Below are positions 12,093-48,666 of a DNA stretch of 64,000 nt, piece by piece. The position numbers were made by a program, and so were the translations under genes. The stretch lies in the IMG/VR virus record IMGVR_UViG_3300036399_001297, positions 19,005-83,004 of that record. One strand, 5' to 3'. This DNA is from a virus. Under the pieces are notes generated by a model. The model did no database searches and had not been told where the DNA came from. It was given only the letters and a program-made list of their open reading frames with translations. Each line of letters starts with the position of its first letter. Within the stretch, counting starts at the first letter, position 1.

Positions 12093-14654
12093 ATGGGGTT
12101 TCGCAATATTTTTTATAACAATAAAACAAATTCTATTCATCTGTGGACGTGGGATGAAAACGGAAATCGGACAGAATTCGATCAAACCGTAGAACCTTAT
12201 TTTTTTATAGAATCTAATGATGCTAATGACGGTGTTTCTATTTTTAAATCAAATCTAAAAAAGATAAAATTTGAAAATAATTATGATAGAAAGAATTACT
12301 TGGAATCATCGCCAATTAAAAAAATATATCACAATCTACCAATAGAACAGCAATATCTATTAGATACATTCAAAACTGGTATTAAAGATGAACACCCCTT
12401 AAAAATTTTCTATCTTGATATCGAAACTTATGCAACCAATAGAAAATTTTCCACACCAGAAGAAGCATCAGATCCCATAAATCTCATAACTATATATGAT
12501 AGTTTGTCTAAAAAATTTTATACATGGGGATTAAAACATTCTTATTATACAAAGGATGATGATGTTATATACACAAAATGCGATTCTGAAAAAGAATTAT
12601 TAGTTTTATTTTTAAAATTTTGGCGGTCAGATTATCCAGATGTGGTTACTGGATGGAACTCTCATGGGTATGATATTCCTTATATTATAAACAGAATCGA
12701 AAAAGTGTTGGGTGAGGATAAAAATAAAAAACTTTCTCCTGTAAATAAAATATGGCTTAAACCCAAAGCATCCGTAAATCTAAAAGGACAAGCAAAAGAT
12801 AGGTGGATAATATATGGAATATCCCATCTAGACTATATGGACGTTTATCAAACCTTTGCTTTAGGGGATAGAGAATCGTATTCTTTGAATTATATTTCCG
12901 AATACGAATTAAAGGAACAGAAAGTGGCCTTTAATTCCGTATCATTGTCAGATTTAGCCGATACAGATTGGCATACCTTCGTAGATTATAATATCCAAGA
13001 CGTAAAACTTCTTATTAAACTTGAAGAAAAGTTAAAATATTTAAAATTAGTTAAAAATTTAGCATACAAAGGATTTATTCCATTCGAAAGAGCGATGGCA
13101 AAGGTGCAACTAATTACAGGAGCAGTAGCATTTCAAGCTCTCAAAGATGGTATGTATATACCAACATACAATATACAAAACGAAAAGGGAAAGTTTGAAG
13201 GCGGGTATGTCAAAGAACCCGTACCCGGTCTGTATGAAAATATCGTAACATATGACGCTAATTCTTTGTATCCGAATACAATTATAACCTTAAACATATC
13301 ACCCGAAACTAAAGTGGGTAAAATTACAAAAATAGAAAATAATAATTACCATTTATTACTTTCAAATAATAAAGAGGTTGTTATATCAAAAGAAAAATAC
13401 GATAAATTAATAACAAAAGAAAACCTAGCTGTATCTAAATCCAATGTACTATATACTCAAAAATTTAAAGGAGTAATACCAAAATTTGTAGACAATCTTT
13501 ATGATCTTAGAGTAAAAGCTAAAAAAGAACAAGGTAAATACGAAAAATTGTATTCAAAAGAAACCGATATAAATTTAAAAGCAAAATACGAAGAACTTAT
13601 TACCGATAATAAAACGTTATCGGAAGTTTATAAAGTGGTCTTAAATTCTTGTTACGGTGTATTCAGTCAAAAATATTCACCTTTATTTGATCTAGACCAT
13701 GCCGAATCCATAACTTTAACAGGACAATCTGCGGTTAAACAAGGCGCTCAAATAATGTTTGATAAATTTATATCAGAAGGAATCGATTGTAAATTTGATG
13801 ATATAATTAGATATTCTGACACTGACAGTATATTTATAGAATTTACAAAAATACTGAAAGATAGAAATATAAATCTAGCAAAAAATAATTTGATCGAAAA
13901 AGATTCAAACACCTTGATAGAAAATTTTGGAGATTATCTAAACGCAGAAATACAAGAATGGGCTAAAAAAGAATTAAATTCATTAGACCCTCGATATGTT
14001 TTCAAAAGAGAAAAAATATGTGATATTGCGGTTCTACAAAAGAAAAAATTTTACATATTACATATTTTGGATAGTGAAGGGATTGCTAAAAATGAATTTC
14101 TATATAAAGGAATCGAAGTAGCCAAATCTATCATGTCAAAAGAAGTTAAAAGTCTTATAAAAAATAGTATAGAAACAGCAATTCTTTCTAAGAATAAAGA
14201 AACATCGATGAGAATTTTCAATGAAAGTTTTGAAAAATTTCTGAATTTCAACGAAGAATTACTATCGGTTAGAAAAAAAGTTAACGATTATGATAAAGGA
14301 GAAAGGGGATATGTTGATGGTAAATACGCACTAGGTACACCAAATCATACTAAGGCCGCTATAAATTATAACGAACTTCTCAAAAAATTAGAAATTGATA
14401 ACAAATATTTAAAAATTGGAAACGGCCAAAAATTTAAATTTTTCTATTGCGAAAGAAATAAATATGGATATTCAAATATGGGATTTTTTACAGATTATCC
14501 AGAAGAATTTAAGACTTATATAAAACCAGATTATAAATTAATGTTTGAAAAAACTATAGCTCCTGTTATCGGAAGAGTTTATTCTATTATCGGATGGCCA
14601 AAACCTAAAGTTGGATTCGATTATCATACAAACCTATTAGACCTCTTCTCTTAG
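12093..14654 (+). CDS. 43: Family B DNA polymerase gp43
   Basis: Replicative DNA polymerase with proofreading exonuclease. Exo I is YLDIETYA, Exo II is GWNSHGYDIPYI and Exo III is VDYNIQDVKLL. Polymerase motif A is DANSLYPNTI, motif B KVVLNSCYG and motif C YSDTDSIFIEF, so all catalytic acids are present. The C-terminus TNLLDLFS resembles the sliding-clamp-binding tail of T4 gp43. I use ATG 12093 (MGFRNIFYNN), because FYNN matches the start strand of T4-like polymerases; an in-frame TTG at 12078 would add five residues. Its length of about 853 residues is close to T4 (898). The last 18 bases overlap a small convergent gene. Confidence 0.95.
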   Translation: MGFRNIFYNNKTNSIHLWTWDENGNRTEFDQTVEPYFFIESNDANDGVSIFKSNLKKIKFENNYDRKNYLESSPIKKIYHNLPIEQQYLLDTFKTGIKDEHPLKIFYLDIETYATNRKFSTPEEASDPINLITIYDSLSKKFYTWGLKHSYYTKDDDVIYTKCDSEKELLVLFLKFWRSDYPDVVTGWNSHGYDIPYIINRIEKVLGEDKNKKLSPVNKIWLKPKASVNLKGQAKDRWIIYGISHLDYMDVYQTFALGDRESYSLNYISEYELKEQKVAFNSVSLSDLADTDWHTFVDYNIQDVKLLIKLEEKLKYLKLVKNLAYKGFIPFERAMAKVQLITGAVAFQALKDGMYIPTYNIQNEKGKFEGGYVKEPVPGLYENIVTYDANSLYPNTIITLNISPETKVGKITKIENNNYHLLLSNNKEVVISKEKYDKLITKENLAVSKSNVLYTQKFKGVIPKFVDNLYDLRVKAKKEQGKYEKLYSKETDINLKAKYEELITDNKTLSEVYKVVLNSCYGVFSQKYSPLFDLDHAESITLTGQSAVKQGAQIMFDKFISEGIDCKFDDIIRYSDTDSIFIEFTKILKDRNINLAKNNLIEKDSNTLIENFGDYLNAEIQEWAKKELNSLDPRYVFKREKICDIAVLQKKKFYILHILDSEGIAKNEFLYKGIEVAKSIMSKEVKSLIKNSIETAILSKNKETSMRIFNESFEKFLNFNEELLSVRKKVNDYDKGERGYVDGKYALGTPNHTKAAINYNELLKKLEIDNKYLKIGNGQKFKFFYCERNKYGYSNMGFFTDYPEEFKTYIKPDYKLMFEKTIAPVIGRVYSIIGWPKPKVGFDYHTNLLDLFS

Positions 14655-14861
14655 TTTTTTTAAAAATTCTTTAGCCCAATTACTTACACGTTTTTGGTAT
14701 TCATCTTGAAAATTATCTATGCGATCTATCAATTCTTGGTATGAATCAGTTTCTATTATTTCATCTTCCAATTTAAGATGAGTTCCGTAAAACTTATCAG
14801 TTTCGGGTTGAACCCAAATTTTAAAATTTTTATAATTTTTATTTAAAAGTCTCCAGTTCAT
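14637..14861 (-). CDS. Small conserved-looking hypothetical protein
   Basis: A 74-residue protein read against gene 43 and overlapping its last 18 bases. It starts NWRLLNKNYKNFKIWVQ, has an acidic centre and ends in a charged helix (NWAKEFLKKLREEV). No family is recognised. It fills an otherwise empty 263-base space and has normal composition, which is the main reason to call it. Confidence 0.5.
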   Translation of the reverse strand: MNWRLLNKNYKNFKIWVQPETDKFYGTHLKLEDEIIETDSYQELIDRIDNFQDEYQKRVSNWAKEFLKKLREEV

Positions 14862-14917
14862 AAATAATTTTTGATTTGTACTTGAATTATTTATCCAATG
14901 TGTTAAATTAATAATGT

Positions 14918-15316
14918 ATGGAAAACACTACAGAAACAGAAACAGAAACAAAAACAAAACTTATAACATTCCTCGATCCTATTGGCAGAACCATCTTAGG
15001 TGAACAAGAACAATGTGAAACACAATTTGCGGTAAAAAACCCCGTAATTCTTCATGTCGTATCTGATAATCAAGGTCGCATGTCTGTTCAACTATTGCCT
15101 CTATTCTTTAGAGAATTTTTGGCCGATAAATCTGAAGATGTTATTTTTTATTACAACTGTTCTAATATTACAAAAACAAATCTAGAAAGTTTGGATTTCA
15201 GACTTCAGGCTCAATATAATCAACTCTTTAATAAGAGCAATGTGTTCGTTCCTCCTAGTGCTGAAACGGTAAATACCGGAAAATCAGAAAAGGTGGTAAA
15301 TTTATTCGAAGAATAG
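14918..15316 (+). CDS. Hypothetical phage protein, possibly Sm-like fold
   Basis: A 132-residue protein. After a Thr/Glu-rich N-terminus, the core has LITFLDPIGRTILGE, a later VKNPVILHV strand, LPLFFREF and VIFYYNCSNIT. This order of a Gly-containing hairpin, an NPV strand and a late aromatic helix resembles a widespread T4-like phage family proposed to have an Sm/LSm-type barrel. That similarity is from memory and tentative. A strong terminator lies 22 bases after its stop. Confidence 0.6.
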   Translation: MENTTETETETKTKLITFLDPIGRTILGEQEQCETQFAVKNPVILHVVSDNQGRMSVQLLPLFFREFLADKSEDVIFYYNCSNITKTNLESLDFRLQAQYNQLFNKSNVFVPPSAETVNTGKSEKVVNLFEE

Positions 15317-15337
15317 TTTATATAAAAACTACAAAAG

Positions 15338-15372
15338 AAATCCCGAAATGTTTTGACATTTCGGGATTTTTT
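15338..15372 (+). terminator. Rho-independent terminator before uvsX
   Basis: A 13-base-pair stem (15338-15350 with 15357-15369) has loop TTTTGA and runs into TTTTTT. The core arms are ATCCCGAAATG and CATTTCGGGAT. It ends the 14918-15316 transcript. The -35 box of the uvsX promoter (TTGACA, 15353-15358) is inside the loop and right arm. Confidence 0.85.
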
Positions 15373-15380
15373 GTTATTAT
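15353..15380 (+). promoter_or_regulatory. sigma70-like promoter of uvsX
   Basis: TTGACA (15353-15358), 16 bases, TATTAT (15375-15380), then 6 bases to ATG 15387. The -35 box overlaps the terminator hairpin, so termination and initiation share the same DNA. The expected transcription start falls at the ATG. Confidence 0.55.
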
Positions 15381-15386
15381 ATCCAT

Positions 15387-16238
15387 ATGGCTAAAACTAA
15401 AAAAGAAAACCTAGAAAACGAACCCCTCGCTGACATTGACGATGCTTTTAAAATCCTAGATGATTTAAATCCAGACGCAGCATTTCTAAATGAGAATACC
15501 CTTTCCACAGTTAAGGAATGGATAGACACTGGTTGTATGGCTTTAAACGCTATAATTTCGGGTTCGTTGTATGGCGGTATACCTATGGGTAGAATTACAG
15601 GATTTGCTGGACCCCAAGCATGTGGAAAAACTTTAATGGTTAATAAAATAATGGCTCATGCTCAAAAGAAGGGTATGAGAGTAGCTTATTTTGATACTGA
15701 AAATGCTCTTGATCCTGATACAGCATCAAATTTAGGATGCGATCCATCAAAAATTAAACATTGTCCAACAGAGGTAATCGAAGAATGTAGAAATCAAATT
15801 GTAAAATTTTTGAAAAGCATCATCGATAATAATCTACAGGGAAAAGTTTTGTTGGTTATAGATTCTTTGGGAAATCTTATATCCTCTAGAGAAGCAAAAG
15901 TAATCGAAGACGGAAAAGATTCGGCAGATATGGGTGCGAGGGCTGTTGCGTGTTTATGTCCAAATACACTTATACACACCATAGACGGAGTTAAAAAGTT
16001 ATCCGATTTAAAAATAGGAGATTTTGTTTTGACTCATTTAGGTAGATATAAAATGATAACAAATAAGTGGGAAACAAACCATAAAGAATATATTAAAATA
16101 AAAACAAAAAATTCTTATATTTTATTATCAATAAATCATAAACTTTTAGTAAAAAGAAATTCAAAACTATCATATATAGAGGCCCAAAATATTAAACCTA
16201 CTGATAAATTATTAAAGTTTAACGAGCAAAATCATTAA
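15387..16238 (+). CDS. uvsX: UvsX recombinase, N-extein plus N-terminal split intein half
   Basis: First part of a fractured RecA-family strand-exchange gene. Residues 1-188 are the UvsX N-extein, with Walker A GPQACGKT and Walker B VLLVIDSLGN, ending at DMGARAVA. From Cys189 the frame becomes an intein N-half (CLCPNTLIHTIDG, IGDFVLTH, block-B-like INHKLLV) and stops after 95 intein residues. The C-half and remaining UvsX lie at 17366-18037, beyond an endonuclease ORF. Joined exteins give about 365 residues, near T4 UvsX (391). Activity therefore requires trans-splicing, which is inferred. Confidence 0.93.
   Translation: MAKTKKENLENEPLADIDDAFKILDDLNPDAAFLNENTLSTVKEWIDTGCMALNAIISGSLYGGIPMGRITGFAGPQACGKTLMVNKIMAHAQKKGMRVAYFDTENALDPDTASNLGCDPSKIKHCPTEVIEECRNQIVKFLKSIIDNNLQGKVLLVIDSLGNLISSREAKVIEDGKDSADMGARAVACLCPNTLIHTIDGVKKLSDLKIGDFVLTHLGRYKMITNKWETNHKEYIKIKTKNSYILLSINHKLLVKRNSKLSYIEAQNIKPTDKLLKFNEQNH
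15951..16235 (+). other. Intein N-half (IntN) of split UvsX intein
   Basis: It begins at Cys189 (TGT 15951) with CLCPNT, matching block A (C1, L2, T6). Block-B-like SINHKLL follows about 65 residues later. The length of 95 residues and the break after block B fit the canonical split site where endonuclease domains normally sit. Confidence 0.9.
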
Positions 16239-16254
16239 AATGTAGAGCAAAATA

Positions 16255-16262
16255 CATAAGTA
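16255..16262 (+). promoter_or_regulatory. Late-promoter-like CATAAGTA before the uvsX-inserted endonuclease
   Basis: CATAAGTA ends 7 bases before ATG 16270, giving the inserted endonuclease ORF its own late-type element independent of uvsX. Confidence 0.45.
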
Positions 16263-16269
16263 TGAATAT

Positions 16270-17376
16270 ATGGAAAATATATTCATAAATTATTTTAAAA
16301 AGAATAAAATAAAATTATCAGAAAAATCATGGAATAATTTAACTCTTATAAAAAATATAAGAGTTGAAAAATTTTTATCAATACCTAAAAACGAAACTAG
16401 ATATAAATGGTTTTGTGATTATGACGGAACATCAACAGCTTTAAATTTTGTAAGAAAAAATAGCAAAAAAATAATGATAGAAAAACTTTGTTATATATGT
16501 GAAAGTAGTTTAGGTGAACAAACTTTATCAAAACAATTTTCTTTTATATATTCAAGTAATAACGAAAATCTCAAACCATCATCACATTTAAATAAAATGT
16601 GTTTTAATTGCGCCACAAGAGAAAATTCTAAAAACGGATTAGAGAAAAGAAAAAAAACATGCTTAGATAAATACGGCATAGAATATAAAATTTTAGATTC
16701 TGACGTAATTAAAAATAGAAAAAAAATTTTAACCGATAGATACGGTGAAAACTATAAAGAATTTTTTTGGGAAAAAGCAAAAAACACTTATATAAGAAAA
16801 CTTGGCGTTTCTCATAATACAAAAATTCCAGAAGTTCTGGAAAAAATGGTAAAAAATAGATTAGAAACATTAAAAACCTTATCTCCGGAAAAATGGAAAG
16901 AATGGTCTGATAATAAAATAAAGGCATATAACAAAGAAGGATCTAGTGGATTATTTGGCAGAAATGATTTTGATGGAAATAGTAAGATAGCTAAGGATTT
17001 TATATCTAAACTTATAAATGTATTAAATCTGCAAGAGAACGAATATATTACAGAAAAACCACATTCGAAATATAATATTGATCTTTATATAAAAGATTTG
17101 GTTATAGTAGAATTTTATGGTGATTTTTGGCACGCAAATCCAGAAATATATAAACCAGATGACATTATAGGTGTAAGTTACAACACAATTACCGCGAAAG
17201 AGAAATGGGAAAAAGACGCTTACCGAATAGAAAAATTAAAAAACGAATTAAATCTTCCGGTTATAATTGTATGGGAAAAATCATATAAAGAAAATAAAGA
17301 TAAAATAATACTTGATATAATCAAAAATATTAATATAATAAAAACCAACAAAGAAATTAAAACATATGTTTATTGA
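16270..17376 (+). CDS. Vsr-like (EDxHD-type) homing endonuclease inside uvsX
   Basis: A 368-residue free-standing endonuclease ORF lies between the two halves of the split uvsX intein. Two CxxC pairs (CYICESS and CFNCATRE, about residues 75 and 114) suggest a zinc-binding module, followed by repeats with LDKYG and LTDRYGENY of the DNA-binding type. The C-terminal catalytic region reads NIDLYIKD, VEFYGDFWHANPEIY, WEKDAYRIEKL and VIIVWEKSY. This is the pattern of the very-short-patch-repair-like homing endonucleases described with fractured split-intein genes. It ends 11 bases inside the next ORF. It may mobilise into intein-free uvsX alleles. Confidence 0.82.
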   Translation: MENIFINYFKKNKIKLSEKSWNNLTLIKNIRVEKFLSIPKNETRYKWFCDYDGTSTALNFVRKNSKKIMIEKLCYICESSLGEQTLSKQFSFIYSSNNENLKPSSHLNKMCFNCATRENSKNGLEKRKKTCLDKYGIEYKILDSDVIKNRKKILTDRYGENYKEFFWEKAKNTYIRKLGVSHNTKIPEVLEKMVKNRLETLKTLSPEKWKEWSDNKIKAYNKEGSSGLFGRNDFDGNSKIAKDFISKLINVLNLQENEYITEKPHSKYNIDLYIKDLVIVEFYGDFWHANPEIYKPDDIIGVSYNTITAKEKWEKDAYRIEKLKNELNLPVIIVWEKSYKENKDKIILDIIKNINIIKTNKEIKTYVY

Positions 17377-17503
17377 AAATAATTACGAAGAAATTGATAT
17401 ACTAGAAATCACAAAAATAGAAGAAGAAAAAACTTTAATAGACATTTCTGTTGAAGAAGATGAGACATTTTGTATTACTGATGAAAGAATTATAAGTCAT
17501 AAT
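17366..17503 (+). other. Intein C-half (IntC) of split UvsX intein
   Basis: 46 codons from ATG 17366 encode the C-half, with block F TLIDISVEEDETFCI and block G RIISHN. The scissile His-Asn is followed by Cys +1 (TGT 17504), the standard chemistry for trans-splicing. Confidence 0.9.
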
Positions 17504-18037
17504 TGTAAGTCTATGCTTAGAGCGATTACACATACAGCAGCAAAGGCTAATTGTCCTGTTGTTTTCACTAATCATATTTACGACAATCCTGGTGCGATGT
17601 ATCCAACCTTGATTAAAAACCAATCGGGTGGTTCTGGTCCTCTGTATATGAGTTCGGTACTGGTTCAGATGTCTACAAAGCAGGAACGAGTCGGAAAATC
17701 TGATAATAAAAATTCAAATGATGATGTCACACCTTTATCCAAAGATGTTAACGGATTAACAATGAGAGCATTGACTACAAAAAATAGATTCGTTCCTCCA
17801 TTTTTGGAATGTGAAATGTATCTAAATTTTAGAACCGGACTTTCTAAATATTCAGGATTATTGGAAATGGCAGAAGGTTACGGTGTAATAGCAAAACAAG
17901 GTCATAGATACGCTCTTGGAGAAGAAGTTTTAGGGTTTTATAAAGATTGGAGAGAAGATGAAATCGTCTGGAATAAGATCTTACCAAAACTTGAAGAGAA
18001 ATTGCAAACCGAATTGAAGTTTAAAAAAGAAGATTAA
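17366..18037 (+). CDS. uvsX: UvsX recombinase, C-terminal split intein half plus C-extein
   Basis: Second part of fractured uvsX. After the 46-residue IntC ending SHN, the C-extein starts CKSMLRAITHTAAK and continues through VVFTNHIYDNPGAM, the GGSGPLYMSS loop and KYSGLLEMAEGYG to the C-terminus. These match the strand-exchange core of T4 UvsX (INHTYET, GGGTGPMYSAD, YSGLLDMALE). It has no detectable promoter, overlaps the endonuclease stop by 11 bases and probably depends on coupled translation. It is followed closely by helicase gene 41. Confidence 0.93.
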   Translation: MFIENNYEEIDILEITKIEEEKTLIDISVEEDETFCITDERIISHNCKSMLRAITHTAAKANCPVVFTNHIYDNPGAMYPTLIKNQSGGSGPLYMSSVLVQMSTKQERVGKSDNKNSNDDVTPLSKDVNGLTMRALTTKNRFVPPFLECEMYLNFRTGLSKYSGLLEMAEGYGVIAKQGHRYALGEEVLGFYKDWREDEIVWNKILPKLEEKLQTELKFKKED

Positions 18038-18043
18038 TCATTA

Positions 18044-19435
18044 ATGCAACCAGCATCTCTATCTTTCGATAAGAAATTATTTGAGAAAGTTTTTATATAT
18101 AATTGTCTAAAGGATTCTTTATATTTAGAGACTGTAATTGATCACACTAAACCATCATTCTTTCAAAACGAAAATATTAGAACGGTTTATAGCGTTATAC
18201 ATTCGTATTTCTGTTTACATAAAAAAATACCAAATTCAACAGAATTAAATCTTCATGTTACGGATGATGATACTAGAAAATCTTTAAAAGATGTGATTTT
18301 GTCGTTTAAAGATATTGATAAAACCTATGATAAAGATGTTTTATTAAATATAACCGAAAAATTTTTAAAGGAAAAAACAGTACTTCAAACTGTTCAGAAA
18401 ACATCAGTAGAAATACAATCGGGAGATTTCGATACTTCTAAAATTTTTAAAGAATTTGAGAAGGCTTGCAATATATCTTTAGTACATGATCACGGTATAG
18501 ATTATTTAGAAAATATAGATAAACATTGTGAAGATTTGTTAAAAACCTTTGAAACTATATCAACCGGATGGTCTTGGTTGGATGATAAATTAGGCGGCGG
18601 TTTTATGAAAAACGGAAAATCTTTATATCTGTTTTTCGGTCAAACTAATGTTGGAAAATCTATTTTTTTGGGAAATATAGCAACAAATGTACTAGAGCAA
18701 AATAAAACTGTTGTGTTAATTTCGATGGAAATGTCGGAAGAAGTATATGCAAAAAGAATCAGTGCTTGTATTTCTGACATACCGATGAGTGATTTAAAAG
18801 AAGAAATCCCAAGTTTAAAAACATATCTAAATGACTATAAAAATAATCACGAAAAATCAAAATTGATCATTAAAGAATTTCCACCTAAAAGTGTCACTCC
18901 TACACATATTAAAACTTATATACATAGATTGGTGAGAAAAGGAATTAAACCAGAATTAATAGTAATCGACTACCTATCTCTTATTTCAGCCGGAACAAAA
19001 GGATTAAATAGTTACGAATCGCAAAAAGAAGTAGCCGAACAAATAAGAAGTCTTTCTTATGAATTCGAATGCAGTATAGTCACAGCAGTACAAACAAATC
19101 GATCTGGTTATGGAGACAACCAACCCGAATTGGAATCTACATCAGAATCAATGGGAATTGCTCATACGGTAGATGCTCAAATATCTATATGGACAAGTGA
19201 AGAGGATAAAGATTTACATGTAATCCATATGGGGGTAGTCAAAAACCGATTTGGACCTAGAGATTGTCAAACTATTTTAGAAATAGATTACCCAACATTA
19301 AAATTAAAGGAGCCAGATGATGTAATTGATGATCTAGCGGTAAAAACTAGACCGATCAAAAAAAATATTGAGTCTTCTGATAATTTAAAAATTAAAAGTA
19401 CATTAGATATTATACAGAGTTTAGACAATGATTGA
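18044..19435 (+). CDS. 41: Replicative DNA helicase gp41 (DnaB-like)
   Basis: Hexameric 5'-3' helicase of the phage replisome. The N-terminal about 150 residues are helical. Then comes STGWSWLDDKLGGG, Walker A FFGQTNVGKSIF, VVLISMEMSEE, Walker B ELIVIDYLSLI and the sensor-like VTAVQTNRSG. Late DAQISIW and VVKNRFGPRD carry the arginine-finger region. Its 463 residues are close to the T4 protein (475). It starts 6 bases after uvsX stops, making a recombination-replication operon. No intein is present here, although gp41 is a known split-intein host in metagenomic phages. Confidence 0.93.
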   Translation: MQPASLSFDKKLFEKVFIYNCLKDSLYLETVIDHTKPSFFQNENIRTVYSVIHSYFCLHKKIPNSTELNLHVTDDDTRKSLKDVILSFKDIDKTYDKDVLLNITEKFLKEKTVLQTVQKTSVEIQSGDFDTSKIFKEFEKACNISLVHDHGIDYLENIDKHCEDLLKTFETISTGWSWLDDKLGGGFMKNGKSLYLFFGQTNVGKSIFLGNIATNVLEQNKTVVLISMEMSEEVYAKRISACISDIPMSDLKEEIPSLKTYLNDYKNNHEKSKLIIKEFPPKSVTPTHIKTYIHRLVRKGIKPELIVIDYLSLISAGTKGLNSYESQKEVAEQIRSLSYEFECSIVTAVQTNRSGYGDNQPELESTSESMGIAHTVDAQISIWTSEEDKDLHVIHMGVVKNRFGPRDCQTILEIDYPTLKLKEPDDVIDDLAVKTRPIKKNIESSDNLKIKSTLDIIQSLDND

Positions 19436-33300: not shown

Positions 33301-34983
33301 TTAAAAAAATACCAGAGGATTATAACCGTCTTCGTTTTTTAATTCTTGTTCCTTTTTATCATTAGATCTCCAAATTATTTCTGGACTATGAGATTTGTAT
33401 TCATATTCGTATCTATTTTTTGTAATATTAGGTTCCCATTTAAGTAATTCCGATTGAAATCCTAATCCTTCTGATATAACAGCCGGATCTTCTTTTATTT
33501 TACCTTCGGGTAAATAGGCTAGGGGAGCATTATAAGATATTTCTTTTTTTGTGGTATTAACCGTACCAAATATAATAGGACTCTTTTTAATAAGATCGGA
33601 ATTATCGATAAAAGGAGTCATAAATAATGGTCTTCCTTGATCATCGGTTTGTTTAACATTAAAATATTTTTGTGCTAATGTTGGTTCTAGGATAAATAAA
33701 GCCCATACTAATGACCAAACTCTATCATCTCTATCACTTTCATTTTTTTTAGAAAATGTGTAATTAGGCAGTTGTACAAATTCTGCTATTTCTATTAAAG
33801 TATCGAGATCAAATATTTTAACAGCTTTTAAACTATCTACCCAATAACGGAAATTTGTCATACTCCGATATCTAGTATTCGTATGATTGTATATACCCAA
33901 TCTATTTTCATTATTGTAGTGCTGAGACATCCCCTCAAATTTATAAGTAACCACTGATTCATAATTGTGGGTTCTGGCAACAACATCTAAAACCTGTTGA
34001 CCGTAATTATTGTTTTCGATTAGTATAGGAGGTCTACCCCAATCATTTGCGATACCGATAAGACGTGTACCGAAATGATACGGTGTTATAGTATTGGATG
34101 CAAATATAGCCACCTGTTCTATATTGGTTAAATCTGAAACATCTAAAACTTGAGCTACTGTATTAGTTCTTCCTATCCCCTCACCAACGTCCACCCCTAT
34201 AATATAATGACTTGTTGGTTTTGGTTGTCTATAAATTTTATAAGAACCTTCGTCTGTTGCTAAAATAGGCTCTTTACATAATTTTTTAAGTTCTTCTAAA
34301 TGTTCGGCTGATATAACAGATTTGCCTAACGTATGAAAAGTATTTTCGTGTTCTTGTTGAAATGTATGTAGTGATCCTAATGAAGCTATTTCACTTTTCT
34401 TCCATTCTTCATTACGGTCATCATTTTCACTCCAATGCACTTTTTCCAGTTTCCATCCACTGTCAGGTTTTTGAGCTTCTAAATATAATTGATAAAATTT
34501 ATTTTCTTTATCGGCTCCGTTAGGTGTAGATATTCCAACAATCTGACTTTTTTTAGAAGACGTTATAGTAGGTATAACAGATTTCCATAATTCCTCCATC
34601 AAATCATTTTGTATATGTGCCATTTCATCAATTATGAGGCATTGATGTGATAATATATTATTAGAAATATATTTATGATTATCTACAACTTCTAAAAATT
34701 CATAAACAGGATCATTATTTTCATATTCCTCTTTTTTTATTAAAGAAATATTATTCCAAAAAATATCACCGATTTTAGAATTTTTAGCATATTTCCATTT
34801 TTTTGATGAAATCATAATTTTATGTTTAGGTGTACAGTTTAAAATTTCACCATTAGAAAAGTATAATTTTAACTTTTTATTATTTTTTCCAACAATTAAT
34901 CCTTTAAAATCTTTAAATCCCTCATCGGTTAAAATTTCAAAATCATTATTTTTATAAATTTTGTAATCAGATAAATCGGCCAT
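33301..34983 (-). CDS. 17: Terminase large subunit, intein C-half plus C-extein (nuclease part)
   Basis: Last part of fractured terL. From ATG 34983 the first 114 residues are an intein C-half ending ILSHQ. The C-extein then starts CLIIDEMAHI, the Walker B, and continues with GISTPNGADKENKFYQLY, FQQEHENTFHTLG and the RNase-H-like nuclease: YIIGVDVGEGIG, ILIENNNYGQQVLD and ESDRDDRVWSLVWALFI, with its acidic catalytic residues. The 446-residue extein plus the upstream pieces gives about 635 residues (T4 gp17 has 610). A GTG at 35013 is an alternative start but overlaps the endonuclease gene. Confidence 0.93.
   Translation of the reverse strand: MADLSDYKIYKNNDFEILTDEGFKDFKGLIVGKNNKKLKLYFSNGEILNCTPKHKIMISSKKWKYAKNSKIGDIFWNNISLIKKEEYENNDPVYEFLEVVDNHKYISNNILSHQCLIIDEMAHIQNDLMEELWKSVIPTITSSKKSQIVGISTPNGADKENKFYQLYLEAQKPDSGWKLEKVHWSENDDRNEEWKKSEIASLGSLHTFQQEHENTFHTLGKSVISAEHLEELKKLCKEPILATDEGSYKIYRQPKPTSHYIIGVDVGEGIGRTNTVAQVLDVSDLTNIEQVAIFASNTITPYHFGTRLIGIANDWGRPPILIENNNYGQQVLDVVARTHNYESVVTYKFEGMSQHYNNENRLGIYNHTNTRYRSMTNFRYWVDSLKAVKIFDLDTLIEIAEFVQLPNYTFSKKNESDRDDRVWSLVWALFILEPTLAQKYFNVKQTDDQGRPLFMTPFIDNSDLIKKSPIIFGTVNTTKKEISYNAPLAYLPEGKIKEDPAVISEGLGFQSELLKWEPNITKNRYEYEYKSHSPEIIWRSNDKKEQELKNEDGYNPLVFF
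34642..34983 (-). other. Intein C-half (IntC) of atypically split TerL intein
   Basis: This 114-residue half contains block B (LNCTPKHKIMI), which is in the N-half of ordinary split inteins, then block F (VYEFLEVVDNHKYI) and block G (NILSHQ). The terminal residue is Gln instead of Asn, followed by Cys +1 (34641-34639). The layout resembles the AceL-TerL class. Confidence 0.88.
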
Positions 34984-34984
34984 T

Positions 34985-35851
34985 TTATTTTTTTCTATGT
35001 TTTTTTCCACCACTTTTTATCCATCCAGTTGGAATATCTTGAGAAATAGGATGTCTTTTAATCTTATTTGTAGTCGTATCACATATAAAAATATATTTTT
35101 CTATACATTTTTTACCAGTGCCTTTTACCCATCCATCAGGTATAGTTATATCCGGATTATGTCGTTTACAAACATTAGCGACTGAGTTATATATATAAAT
35201 AGAACCTTTACCTGATATTTTTGATATATTTTCTTTATTATTTTCGCGTGATTTTAAAATACCATCCCTAATATTTTTTTTAGCTTCTTCGGATCTTTTC
35301 ATACCCCTGTGTTTTTCGGCCATTTTTTTAATTTTTTCGGGATTTTTATTGATTTTTATCATACGTTCTTTATGTTTTTCCGGATTTTCTTTTATCCATT
35401 TTTTAATACCAATTCCTTTTCTTTTATTTATTTCTGGATTATCAAAAACTTTTTCTCTCATCATTTTTTTATAGTCTTCAGATTTCCATTTTTTTTTAAA
35501 TCTTGTAGATATCTTTTTTATTGCCTTTGATGACCACGCACAAGGCCCATAGCCACCTTCTTTAATGTTATACGTATCATTTCTTTCTATAAATTCTAAT
35601 GTTACTAATTTTCTTTCGGCGTGAAGTGCTTCTTGATACGTATTATAAAAATTCAATATTGTTTTTTTAAAATTTTCTATTCCATATTTTTTTATGGATC
35701 TTTTTAAATTAAGACCAGACCCCATATAACCATCATCTATATTATCTGTCCTATGAACTCCTATATAAATTTTACCGTTTTTAATATTTTCAATTTCATA
35801 TAAATAATTGTATTTTCTATTTATTTTCGGATCGTTTAAATGTTTCTTCAT
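34985..35851 (-). CDS. GIY-YIG homing endonuclease inside terL
   Basis: A 288-residue free-standing endonuclease between the halves of the split TerL intein. The N-terminal catalytic domain has YLYEIENIKNGKIYIGVHR, followed by YMGSGLNLKRSIKKYG. The centre is a run of Lys-rich NUMOD3-like DNA-binding segments (NPEKIKKMAEKHRGMKRSEE). The C-terminus has two repeats ending in IPDGWVKGTGKK and IPTGWIKSGGKK. Its stop is 1 base before the IntC ATG. It has its own TATAAGTA element. It probably cuts intein-free terL alleles and drives spread of the locus, which is inferred. Confidence 0.88.
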   Translation of the reverse strand: MKKHLNDPKINRKYNYLYEIENIKNGKIYIGVHRTDNIDDGYMGSGLNLKRSIKKYGIENFKKTILNFYNTYQEALHAERKLVTLEFIERNDTYNIKEGGYGPCAWSSKAIKKISTRFKKKWKSEDYKKMMREKVFDNPEINKRKGIGIKKWIKENPEKHKERMIKINKNPEKIKKMAEKHRGMKRSEEAKKNIRDGILKSRENNKENISKISGKGSIYIYNSVANVCKRHNPDITIPDGWVKGTGKKCIEKYIFICDTTTNKIKRHPISQDIPTGWIKSGGKKHRKK

Positions 35852-35857
35852 TAGAAA

Positions 35858-35865
35858 TACTTATA
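35858..35865 (-). promoter_or_regulatory. TATAAGTA late-promoter-like element before the terL-inserted endonuclease
   Basis: Minus-strand TATAAGTATTTCTAATG: the element ends 6 bases before ATG 35851. Confidence 0.5.
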
Positions 35866-35898
35866 CACGATGATTTATTATAGATGAATTTGCTTATA

Positions 35899-37638
35899 TC
35901 AATCATTTAAAACTATAAAATGAGGCGGTTCTTCTTGATTATTTTTTAACAATTCTTCTAGATCTTTTAAATTGATTTTAAATATTTCTTCTGTTTTTTT
36001 ATCTTTTAATGTTACAATTGTGTCACCAGTAACACAATTTATAGATTGACCTCTAACAGCAGAAGCAGAAGTAGAAGAAACTATAATACTTGACCCATTA
36101 CTAAGATCGAATCCGTTTTTTCTATTAGATTTTACAGCTGGTTTTAAATATACAGGCAATTCTTCAAAAGCCATTTTTATTCTAGAAAAAATTTCCATGG
36201 CAGTATCAGCTTTGTTAGCCAGTATAGCAACTTTTTTATATTCATGAAAGCATACTAACCATAAAGCATACATGGAAACAATTGTGCTATTGTGAGTAGG
36301 TATTAAACCTTTTCCACATAGATATAAAGAATCTGGACTATCTACGGTGATACATCTAACAGGAACACTTTCTACTTCTTTAATATCTTTTATATAAAAA
36401 TATTGATTTCTTTTAGATGTTGACAAATAAGTTTTTACAAATCTAGAACATTTAAAATCCGAACAAGTAACACATTCTCTTGGTTTAAAATATAGAATAC
36501 CACATTTTGTATATTCTTTATCTTTAATTTTAGGTATTTTTTCATTATATTTTACCTTATATCCTAAACTTTCTATCAATTCTTTTACTTGTAAAATTAA
36601 AGGTATATTAGTATTATAAAAAATAGCACTTCCGTTTTTTTCAATATATCCATCAGAATCCATTAAACCTTTTAAAAGCTCCATTCTTTGATGTTTGGAT
36701 GCTTTTAAAAATATATCGGGTATATGTTTATTTTTAAATAAATTGTTAGTTCTTAAATGATAGTATAAAGAATTTTTTTTATCTTCGTTAGTTAATTTTA
36801 CAAGAAAATTGTCTTTTTTATATTCTTTAACGTTTATTATTTTATAAAAATCTAATTCTTTTATCTTTTTTAAAATAGAATCTATATCTCTTATTCCTAT
36901 AGTTATTCTAGAATCATTCGAATGTCCATCTCCTAACCACAAACCTAAAATATATGGATTTATAGGTAAATTCTTGTTATCATTATATAAACCATCTACA
37001 CACGAAATTATACGATGATTTGGTTCTCCGCTTAATGTCGTTAAAGTTTTTAAAATTTCTTCTGTTGTTTTTGAACAACCTTTACTTTTTTTAGTTTTTC
37101 TATCATTTCTAGTTTCAGTAAACCAAAGATGTTCAGCATCAGCGATTATTTTTTCACCGTTATCAAATAATATTTCGTAACATTTTCTATTGTGTAATAT
37201 ATCATGCGCTTTTGTTACGTTGTAGATGTTTCCGTCAGAACCATATATTTTATCTCCGGTTTTTAAATCTCCCATTTTTAAAAATCCATTTGGAGTTGGT
37301 ATAGGAGTTTCAATAGAAAGAGCTTTCCCCATCTGTCTCGAAGCACATACCAATAATCTTCTTTCGTCCTTTAAACTTTTTAATATTCTTTTTTGATATT
37401 TTCTAAGTTTAATTTTTATTTTACCTTCATCTAAATTTACAATATGAAAATGTCTTTCCGCAAAATGTAAAATACTTTTAGCACATGTTCTATTTTCTTC
37501 GAACATCTCTTCGGTAAAGATTATTTTTGCGTTCTTGTTTAGAAGATTTTCATTTCCTTTATAATATCCACCATCGACAAGAATATTATCTTTATCAATT
37601 TCAGGAACATCAGGAATAGGTGCTTTTTTTCTTGGCAT
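35899..37638 (-). CDS. 17: Terminase large subunit, N-extein with contiguous intein plus second IntN
   Basis: First part of fractured terL, 579 residues. Residues 1-105 are extein ending LVCASRQMGK. Residues 106-450 are a contiguous intein with a LAGLIDADG endonuclease domain. Residues 451-534 resume the ATPase: STIVSMYALW, VAILANKADTAMEIF, DLSNGSSIIVSS and AVRGQSIN. Residues 535-579 are the N-half of a second, split intein (CVTGDTIVTL). Removing the first intein restores the Walker A SRQMGKST, comparable to T4 SRQLGKTT. The packaging ATPase therefore needs one cis- and one trans-splicing event. It starts 2 bases after gp53. Confidence 0.93.
   Translation of the reverse strand: MPRKKAPIPDVPEIDKDNILVDGGYYKGNENLLNKNAKIIFTEEMFEENRTCAKSILHFAERHFHIVNLDEGKIKIKLRKYQKRILKSLKDERRLLVCASRQMGKALSIETPIPTPNGFLKMGDLKTGDKIYGSDGNIYNVTKAHDILHNRKCYEILFDNGEKIIADAEHLWFTETRNDRKTKKSKGCSKTTEEILKTLTTLSGEPNHRIISCVDGLYNDNKNLPINPYILGLWLGDGHSNDSRITIGIRDIDSILKKIKELDFYKIINVKEYKKDNFLVKLTNEDKKNSLYYHLRTNNLFKNKHIPDIFLKASKHQRMELLKGLMDSDGYIEKNGSAIFYNTNIPLILQVKELIESLGYKVKYNEKIPKIKDKEYTKCGILYFKPRECVTCSDFKCSRFVKTYLSTSKRNQYFYIKDIKEVESVPVRCITVDSPDSLYLCGKGLIPTHNSTIVSMYALWLVCFHEYKKVAILANKADTAMEIFSRIKMAFEELPVYLKPAVKSNRKNGFDLSNGSSIIVSSTSASAVRGQSINCVTGDTIVTLKDKKTEEIFKINLKDLEELLKNNQEEPPHFIVLND
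35902..36036 (-). other. Intein N-half (IntN) of atypically split TerL intein
   Basis: 45 residues from Cys535 (CVTGDTIVTLKD, block A) to the stop. It lacks block B, which is found in the C-half, so the split lies unusually early in the intein. The insertion point follows AVRGQSIN, directly before Walker B. Confidence 0.88.
36289..37323 (-). other. Contiguous LAGLIDADG intein in the TerL Walker A motif
   Basis: 345 residues from Ala106 (ALSIETPIPTPNGF, an Ala-start block A) to Asn450 (GLIPTHN), followed by Ser +1. The inner endonuclease has both LAGLIDADG helices: YILGLWLGDGHSND and LLKGLMDSDGYIEKNG. Extein joining gives ...QMGK/STIV..., so the intein interrupts the P-loop Lys-Ser bond. Confidence 0.92.
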
Positions 37639-47790: not shown

Positions 47791-48666
47791 TTATAAAGTA
47801 TTTATATTAATTTTTTGTTCTTCTATATAATATCCTTTTATTTTATACGGCATTCCGTTTTTTCTTTTTTTATTAAAAGTATTTCTTAATCCTCTATAAT
47901 CAATATTTCGTTCTCTGCAAAAAACTACAAGTTTATTGACTTTTATTTTTTCATTTTCTGGAGTCACGACAATATATGAATATGCTGTTTTTTGAATTTT
48001 TTGGCTATTTTTTTCTCTAAAACTTTTAAGTCTTTCTATTTCTAATTGTTTTTTATAATGATTGTTATAGTTTAAATTGTATTTTTTTATCCATTTTGAT
48101 ATTGTATTTCTATCAAGATTTATTTCGCTGGCAATATCTTTTATTAATACATTTTCGTTTAATTTTTTTTGTATATGTTCTATTTTTTCTTTATTTTTTA
48201 AATACAATGTTTTTTTTGTACTTTCTGTTTGTTTTTTTCTCATATCTTTATAAAAATCTTCTCCATATATTTTTTTGATTTCTTCTACGCTTAAAGGTTG
48301 ATTTCCACCATTCAATAAATTACATAAAGTTCCTTTTCCTTCAATTCTTTTACCATATAAATTTATTAATTCCAATTCTTTTTCTAAAGCTTCTTTTTCA
48401 GTCAAACTATCAACTAATATTTTTTCAGTAAAATCAGAATTTTTATTAAAAATAGATTTCAATTTACAATATAAAAAATAATTTGTTATTTTTCCTAATT
48501 TATAATTTTTTCTGTGATGTTTATATCTTTTATCGGTTCCTTTTCCTATATAAAAACATATATCATTTTCATCAAATAACCCATACACATAGTATTTTTT
48601 TCCATATAAATATTTACCAATCTTTACACGCAATAATTTATTTTTAAAACTTGTAGAAAATACCAT
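47791..48666 (-). CDS. Free-standing GIY-YIG homing endonuclease
   Basis: A 291-residue endonuclease not inside another gene. The catalytic domain reads YYVYGLFDENDICFYIGKG with TDKRYKHHRKNYK, then LEKELELINLYG and LCNLLNGGNQPLS as the usual GIY-YIG continuation. The C-terminal part has an HTH-like segment (IKDIASEINLDRNTISKWIK) and a DNA-binding tail. Its stop abuts the end of the plus-strand basic gene exactly, with no spacer, as expected for an insertion. It lies within 400 bases of the sheath gene. Confidence 0.88.
   Translation of the reverse strand: MVFSTSFKNKLLRVKIGKYLYGKKYYVYGLFDENDICFYIGKGTDKRYKHHRKNYKLGKITNYFLYCKLKSIFNKNSDFTEKILVDSLTEKEALEKELELINLYGKRIEGKGTLCNLLNGGNQPLSVEEIKKIYGEDFYKDMRKKQTESTKKTLYLKNKEKIEHIQKKLNENVLIKDIASEINLDRNTISKWIKKYNLNYNNHYKKQLEIERLKSFREKNSQKIQKTAYSYIVVTPENEKIKVNKLVVFCRERNIDYRGLRNTFNKKRKNGMPYKIKGYYIEEQKININTL

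What the first reader, a model, noticed from the sequence alone, without database searches (positions are those of the whole stretch)
15387..18037. Fractured uvsX: split intein with a Vsr-like homing endonuclease between the halves
Seen: UvsX N-extein (188 residues) joins at Cys189 to a 95-residue intein N-half; a separate 368-residue endonuclease ORF with the VEFYGDFWHANP...WEKDAYR...VIIVWEK pattern follows; a third ORF opens with a 46-residue intein C-half ending SHN/C and completes UvsX. Known: Dassa and co-workers described fractured genes with split inteins and a Vsr-like endonuclease in metagenomic gp41, nrdA, nrdJ and IMPDH. Inference: this extends the arrangement to the phage recombinase, which would be made only by trans-splicing.
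Basis: partly seen in the sequence, partly recalled or inferred. Interest (0 to 1): 0.88.

Follow-up and report, generated by a model that had tools for sequence, protein, structure and literature searches.

The report
Phage recombinase split by trans-splicing intein
A phage's DNA-repair recombinase gene is broken in two by a mobile element that encodes a DNA-cutting enzyme and two half-inteins able to rejoin the protein; a near-identical phage still has the unbroken gene, and a patch of foreign DNA at the insertion point shows that the element jumped in recently.

Summary
At 15387-18037, uvsX is split into an N-extein fused to a 95-residue intein N-half, a 368-residue endonuclease ORF, and a 46-residue intein C-half fused to the rest of UvsX. 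The three ORFs lie in three different frames. The same order recurs in L065, L066/L067 and L068. The intein residues C1, block-B His, and HN/C(+1) are invariant. The endonuclease C-domain folds like I-Bth0305I and Vsr.
New evidence: L003 is a 99%-identical phage with an empty site. Around the junction the window differs from L003 at 15 of 46 nt, against about 1% elsewhere, and there it matches another lineage (L007) instead. This is a co-conversion tract left by recent homing.
All 57 intein-free relatives read at the site have Leu at +1, so the element brought its own nucleophilic Cys and spliced UvsX should be L189C.
Relatives show endonuclease loss or decay (L094/L069, L132, L156) while both intein halves stay intact. 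Fractured uvsX also occurs at two other sites (L188/L198; Lak phage B1). The window's terL is a second fractured gene.
This is a fractured gene in the sense of Dassa et al. 2009, with uvsX as host: a new member of a known kind. Trans-splicing itself is inferred, not shown.

The parts
15387..15950 (+). UvsX N-extein (188 aa; Walker A GPQACGKT), ends ...GARAVA
   Evidence: phrog_97 5e-36, RecA PF00154 4e-15; 99% identical to intein-free L003
15951..16235 (+). Intein N-half (95 aa, starts CLCPNTLI; block-B motif SINH); stop 16236-16238
   Evidence: Hint_2 2e-4, TIGR01445 aligned 1-83/83, gp41-1 structure hit 3e-5; C1 and H63 invariant in 6 homologues
16270..17376 (+). Homing endonuclease ORF (368 aa): CxxC...CxxC N-terminal part, KYG-type repeats (DUF7487), C-terminal EDxHD/Vsr-fold nuclease (EFYGDFWHANP)
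   Evidence: PF24308 4e-6; alignment of 34 homologues with invariant D, E, GD, H, W; AF2 + Foldseek to 1cw0/3r3p; dN/dS about 0.2 against L065
17366..17503 (+). Intein C-half (46 aa, ends IISHN); start codon overlaps the end of the endonuclease ORF by 11 nt
   Evidence: PF14890 to its C-terminus, weak; H45, N46 and C+1 invariant in 6 homologues
17504..18034 (+). UvsX C-extein (177 aa, starts CKSMLRAITH); stop 18035-18037
   Evidence: phrog_97 6e-24, TIGR02012 2e-11
15914..15950 (+). 5' part of the co-conversion tract: 11 of 37 nt differ from near-identical L003, 2 of 37 from L007
17504..17512 (+). 3' part of the co-conversion tract: 4 of 9 nt differ from L003, including the TTA(Leu) to TGT(Cys) +1 codon
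15335..15380 (+). Terminator-like hairpin (15335-15372) overlapped by a promoter-like site (15353-15380, 11/12) just upstream of uvsX
   Evidence: consensus match only

Best explanation
This is a mobile 'fractured gene' element in the phage recombinase gene uvsX. Shown: the two intein halves with intact catalytic residues, the separate EDxHD/Vsr-fold endonuclease gene between them, purifying selection on all parts, an empty site in a near-identical phage, and a 46-nt co-conversion tract around the junction. Inferred: (1) both UvsX halves are made as separate proteins; IntN and IntC associate and splice in trans (C1, block-B His, HN, C+1), giving a 365-residue UvsX with Leu189 replaced by Cys; (2) the endonuclease cuts intein-free uvsX alleles near RAV[AS]/LKSM in co-infecting phages, and recombinational repair from the intein-bearing copy installs the whole element with short donor flanks, including the +1 Cys codon; (3) once the host gene depends on splicing, the halves are kept even after the endonuclease decays.
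For: Anatomy and families. Conserved order in L065, L066/L067, L068. Invariant catalytic residues. gp41-1 intein hit. Endonuclease fold Vsr/I-Bth0305I. dN/dS against L065: intN 0.15/1.15, HEG 0.17/0.86; intC has 24 of 33 changes at third positions. Empty site in L003, 99.1% identical over 6.5 kb; 11 of 59 upstream mismatches fall in the last 37 nt (hypergeometric P=3e-12 for the last 60 nt), 4 more in the first 9 nt downstream. In the tract the window matches L007 (42/46) rather than L003 (31/46), the reverse of everywhere else. 57/57 intein-free relatives have Leu at +1. Both halves kept when the endonuclease is partly deleted (L094/L069), missing (L132) or broken by a recombinase/TnpB insertion sequence (L156). 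No group I intron.
Against: No splicing or cleavage data. IntC profile match is weak on its own (E=0.06). Block-B Thr is Ser here. The window record is one metagenomic contig, so a chimeric assembly at the junction cannot be wholly excluded without reads, though it would need two switches within 46 nt exactly flanking the element. L003 ends 250 nt after the junction.
Confidence: 0.9

Rival explanations
1. Genes-in-pieces without splicing: the UvsX halves associate non-covalently (as for Aeh1 NrdA split by mobE), and the intein pieces are vestigial tails.
For: Such split enzymes are known in phages (PMC2988022).
Against: C1, block-B His, HN and C+1 are invariant over 6 diverged loci, and the intein halves are under purifying selection comparable with the exteins; +1 Leu became Cys in every bearer at this site.
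Confidence: 0.05
2. Sequencing or assembly error, or frameshift, in a single contiguous intein with an embedded endonuclease, or a chimeric contig.
For: Single metagenomic contig; the 46-nt tract could in principle come from strain mixing.
Against: Three ORFs in three frames with overlap/gap structure repeated in L065, L066/L067 and L068 and in other frame relations; two identical contigs from different samples.
Confidence: 0.02
3. Dead uvsX: the insertion inactivated the gene, and the phage uses another recombinase.
For: The record is partial (83 kb), so a second recombinase cannot be excluded; only the two uvsX pieces match RecA in it.
Against: Both exteins are intact, 99-100% identical over the shared part to the uninterrupted L003 gene, and conserved in old bearers (62-73% identity without stops).
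Confidence: 0.03

Closest known systems
Fractured genes with split inteins and EDxHD/Vsr-like endonucleases (Dassa et al. 2009: gp41, NrdA, NrdJ, IMPDH and others)
   Same: Conserved DNA-metabolism gene broken by a split intein, free-standing Vsr-like endonuclease gene between the halves, phage setting. Same endonuclease family found here in a fractured NrdJ-like gene (L083), a topoisomerase-like gene (L157), and the split DNA polymerase of Aeromonas phage Aes508 (L127, annotated).
   Different: Host gene is uvsX; here with an empty-site sister phage, co-conversion tract and endonuclease-decay series. Paper not held, so whether uvsX is among its eight enzyme types is unchecked.
VidaL_UvsX-2 naturally split intein (Neugebauer 2017; Burton 2020; the UvsX attribution is from memory)
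   Same: Naturally split intein thought to lie in UvsX.
   Different: VidaL has an atypical 16-residue IntN (PMC13014065); here the split is at the canonical position (95 + 46).
I-Bth0305I (EDxHD homing endonuclease, PDB 3r3p)
   Same: Catalytic-domain fold (prob 1.00, TM 0.72 by target).
   Different: From memory, lies in a group I intron of a recA gene; here in a split intein, no intron found.
T4 SegA and free-standing phage endonucleases
   Same: SegA cuts uvsX, and seg endonucleases spread by homing (PMC2988022).
   Different: GIY-YIG enzyme beside, not inside, uvsX; no intein.
Fractured uvsX of Prevotella phage Lak-B1 (MK250020, unannotated)
   Same: IntN / endonuclease / IntC in uvsX (code 15).
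   Different: Other insertion site (QAMG/S, L2-loop region), +1 Ser, diverged endonuclease.

Membership tests
Class 1 intein (Hint domain) | Cys/Ser at position 1, block-B His, C-terminal His-Asn, nucleophile at +1 | tested here: met
   C1, H63, H45-N46, C+1 invariant in 6 homologues; block-B Thr is Ser
[quoted passage not shown]
   283-aa and 223-aa ORFs in different frames; N 95 + C 46
Naturally split intein | Protein trans-splicing activity | not testable with these tools
   needs expression
Fractured gene (Dassa 2009) | Conserved gene broken by a split intein with a free-standing endonuclease ORF between | tested here: met
   window, L065, L066/L067, L068
EDxHD / Vsr-like homing endonuclease | Vsr/I-Bth0305I catalytic fold with conserved acidic and His residues | tested here: met
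   Foldseek top five: Vsr, I-Bth0305I, ngo0050; invariant D, E, GD, H in 34 homologues
EDxHD / Vsr-like homing endonuclease | Cuts the intein-free allele near the insertion site | not testable with these tools
   indirect: co-conversion tract at the junction
UvsX recombinase | RecA-core domain, UvsX family profile | tested here: met
   phrog_97, PF00154, TIGR02012; PDB 9gbg UvsX
Group I intron | Intron RNA structure | tested here: not met
   no Rfam intron hit, also at relaxed threshold over 14600-18600

The most novel reading that the evidence does not exclude
The mobile unit carries its own +1 nucleophile. Homing overwrites a conserved extein Leu with Cys through a short co-converted flank, so a split intein can colonise a site that has no Cys/Ser/Thr, leaving a permanent L189C scar in the recombinase. 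Because homing in T4 depends on the recombinase, the element sits in, and must rebuild, a protein that its own mobility is likely to need.
Probability: 0.55. Interest if true: 0.6.

Novelty: new member of a known kind. Interest (0 to 1): 0.5.

Why it matters
The with/without pair of near-identical phages, the mapped co-conversion tract and the endonuclease-loss variants make the life cycle of a fractured-gene element directly testable. The candidate target site, donor-like lineage, recipient and product are all named. It also offers new candidate split inteins at the canonical split position, with native extein junctions, in a recombinase that phage homing itself is likely to use.

Tried and rejected
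Group I intron: none found. Sequence search of the whole endonuclease against the PDB gave nothing; the full-length AF2 model was poor (pLDDT 70) but already ranked Vsr first. The IntC profile against the PDB gave only a chance hit. Exact search for other copies of the window's N-junction in IMG/VR: none; the L003-type empty site occurs only in L003's own contig. Literature searches for 'split intein' with UvsX returned no paper in the held library; Dassa 2009 is not held. No contiguous intein was found at this uvsX site. The tblastn hits of ORF1 to T4-like UvsX through residue 269 looked like intein coverage but were not followed beyond Lak-B1.

Full report
What was checked. The window is part of an 83-kb viral record. 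ORF1 15387-16238 is 188 residues of UvsX plus a 95-residue intein N-half; ORF2 16270-17376 is a 368-residue endonuclease; ORF3 17366-18037 is a 46-residue intein C-half plus 177 residues of UvsX. The two UvsX pieces match phrog_97 at adjoining profile positions (1-197 and from 198). They are in three frames, and a single frameshift cannot join them.

Intein. Hint_2 and the intein_Nterm model match the N-half and the Intein_splicing model matches the end of the C-half, all below curated cut-offs. A profile of the N-halves finds the gp41-1 intein structures at 3e-5. Over six diverged loci C1, the block-B His, and HN/C(+1) are invariant.

Endonuclease. It has a CxxC...CxxC region, KYG-type repeats (DUF7487 4e-6) and a C-terminal EFYGDFWHANP domain. 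A model of that domain from 34 homologues has pLDDT 90.8; its best PDB matches are E. coli Vsr, the homing endonuclease I-Bth0305I and ngo0050, all with high Foldseek probability though modest E-values. A similar layout of repeated DNA-binding modules plus EDxHD/Vsr domain is described for other phage homing endonucleases in PMC12350094. No group I intron is present.

Relatives at the same site. The full arrangement is found in L065 (71-76% identity per part), L066 = L067 (identical over 2763 nt in two samples), and L068, whose junction is shifted by one codon (RAK/CIKSM). In the same phage type as L066, L094 and L069 overlap exactly and show an allele with most of the endonuclease deleted; the exteins and intein halves differ from L066 by 5 of 833 and 0 of 813 nt. 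L132 has the split intein with no endonuclease, and its neighbouring gp41 gene is also split by a split intein. In L156 the endonuclease remnant is interrupted by a serine recombinase/TnpB element. The intein halves stay intact in all of these.

Selection. Window against L065: dN/dS is 0.15/1.15 (intN) and 0.17/0.86 (endonuclease); in intC 24 of 33 differences are at third positions.

Empty site and homing. L003 is 99.1% identical to the window over 6.5 kb upstream but has uninterrupted uvsX (RAVA/LKSM) as far as the contig reaches. Fifteen of the 69 differences fall in the 46 nt around the junction (-37 to +9); elsewhere there is roughly 1% difference. In that tract the window matches L007 in 42 of 46 positions and L003 in 31; outside it matches L003 almost perfectly and L007 poorly. 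This reciprocal switch is what repair from a donor with L007-like flanks would leave. All 57 intein-free relatives that could be read at the site have Leu at +1, while bearers have Cys; the Cys came in with the tract. Spliced UvsX should therefore be L189C.

Other sites. Fractured uvsX also occurs with the break before SDMG (L188 without endonuclease, L198 with a related one) and in Lak-B1 with the break at QAMG/S. So the gene has been fractured at three places at least; by comparison with RecA these lie in or near the two DNA-binding loops (inference).

Mechanism. Shown: anatomy, families, conservation, empty site, tract, endonuclease loss. Inferred: trans-splicing, cleavage of empty alleles, and retention of the halves because the host protein depends on them. 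T4 intron homing depends on RecA or UvsX (PMC2988022), so the element probably sits in a gene that its own mobility needs.

Novelty. The kind is known: fractured genes of Dassa et al. 2009 (not held). From memory that abstract names eight enzyme types, and a differently split UvsX intein, VidaL, is known. I therefore file this as a new member of a known kind. The evidence for recent homing and the imported +1 Cys are the most informative parts. Limits: intein-free relatives were found with patterns from this protein, and no reads were seen.

Noticed in passing
window 33301-37638 (-): terL is a second fractured gene: ORF 37638-35899 (Terminase_6N) holds a contiguous LAGLIDADG intein at the Walker A motif (QMGK/A...HN/S) and ends in another intein N-part (RGQSIN/CVTGDT...); a GIY-YIG (SegE-like) ORF 35851-34985 follows; ORF 35013-33301 opens with the intein C-part (...NILSHQ/C) and continues as Terminase_6C. 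The second intein looks atypically split, like AceL-TerL.
   Followed up: partly
L132 4443-8078: Two adjacent genes, uvsX and the gp41/DnaB-type helicase, are each split by a split intein with no endonuclease between the halves.
   Followed up: partly
L156 2792-5020: Endonuclease remnant in fractured uvsX interrupted by a serine recombinase + TnpB (IS607-like) element.
   Followed up: partly
L126 3001-6134 (Lak-B1, code 15): Unannotated fractured uvsX at a different site with a Vsr-like endonuclease in a GenBank megaphage.
   Followed up: partly
L188 3401-5299; L198 3404-6156: Fractured uvsX at a third site (AGG/S-DMG), with (L198) and without (L188) a related endonuclease.
   Followed up: partly
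L157 2133-5756: Topoisomerase (gp39/GyrB-like) gene fractured by a split intein with a Vsr-like endonuclease between the halves.
   Followed up: no
L083 4708-8561: Ribonucleotide reductase (NrdJ-like) gene fractured with the same endonuclease family.
   Followed up: no
L068 5070-7702 against L132 4443-6176: Exteins 84-86% identical but intein halves only 49-50%, with junctions one codon apart: suggests separate acquisition.
   Followed up: partly
window 47791-48666 (-): ORF that by eye resembles a GIY-YIG endonuclease, with a weak HTH match by Pfam and no GIY-YIG profile hit, next to a tail-sheath-like gene.
   Followed up: no
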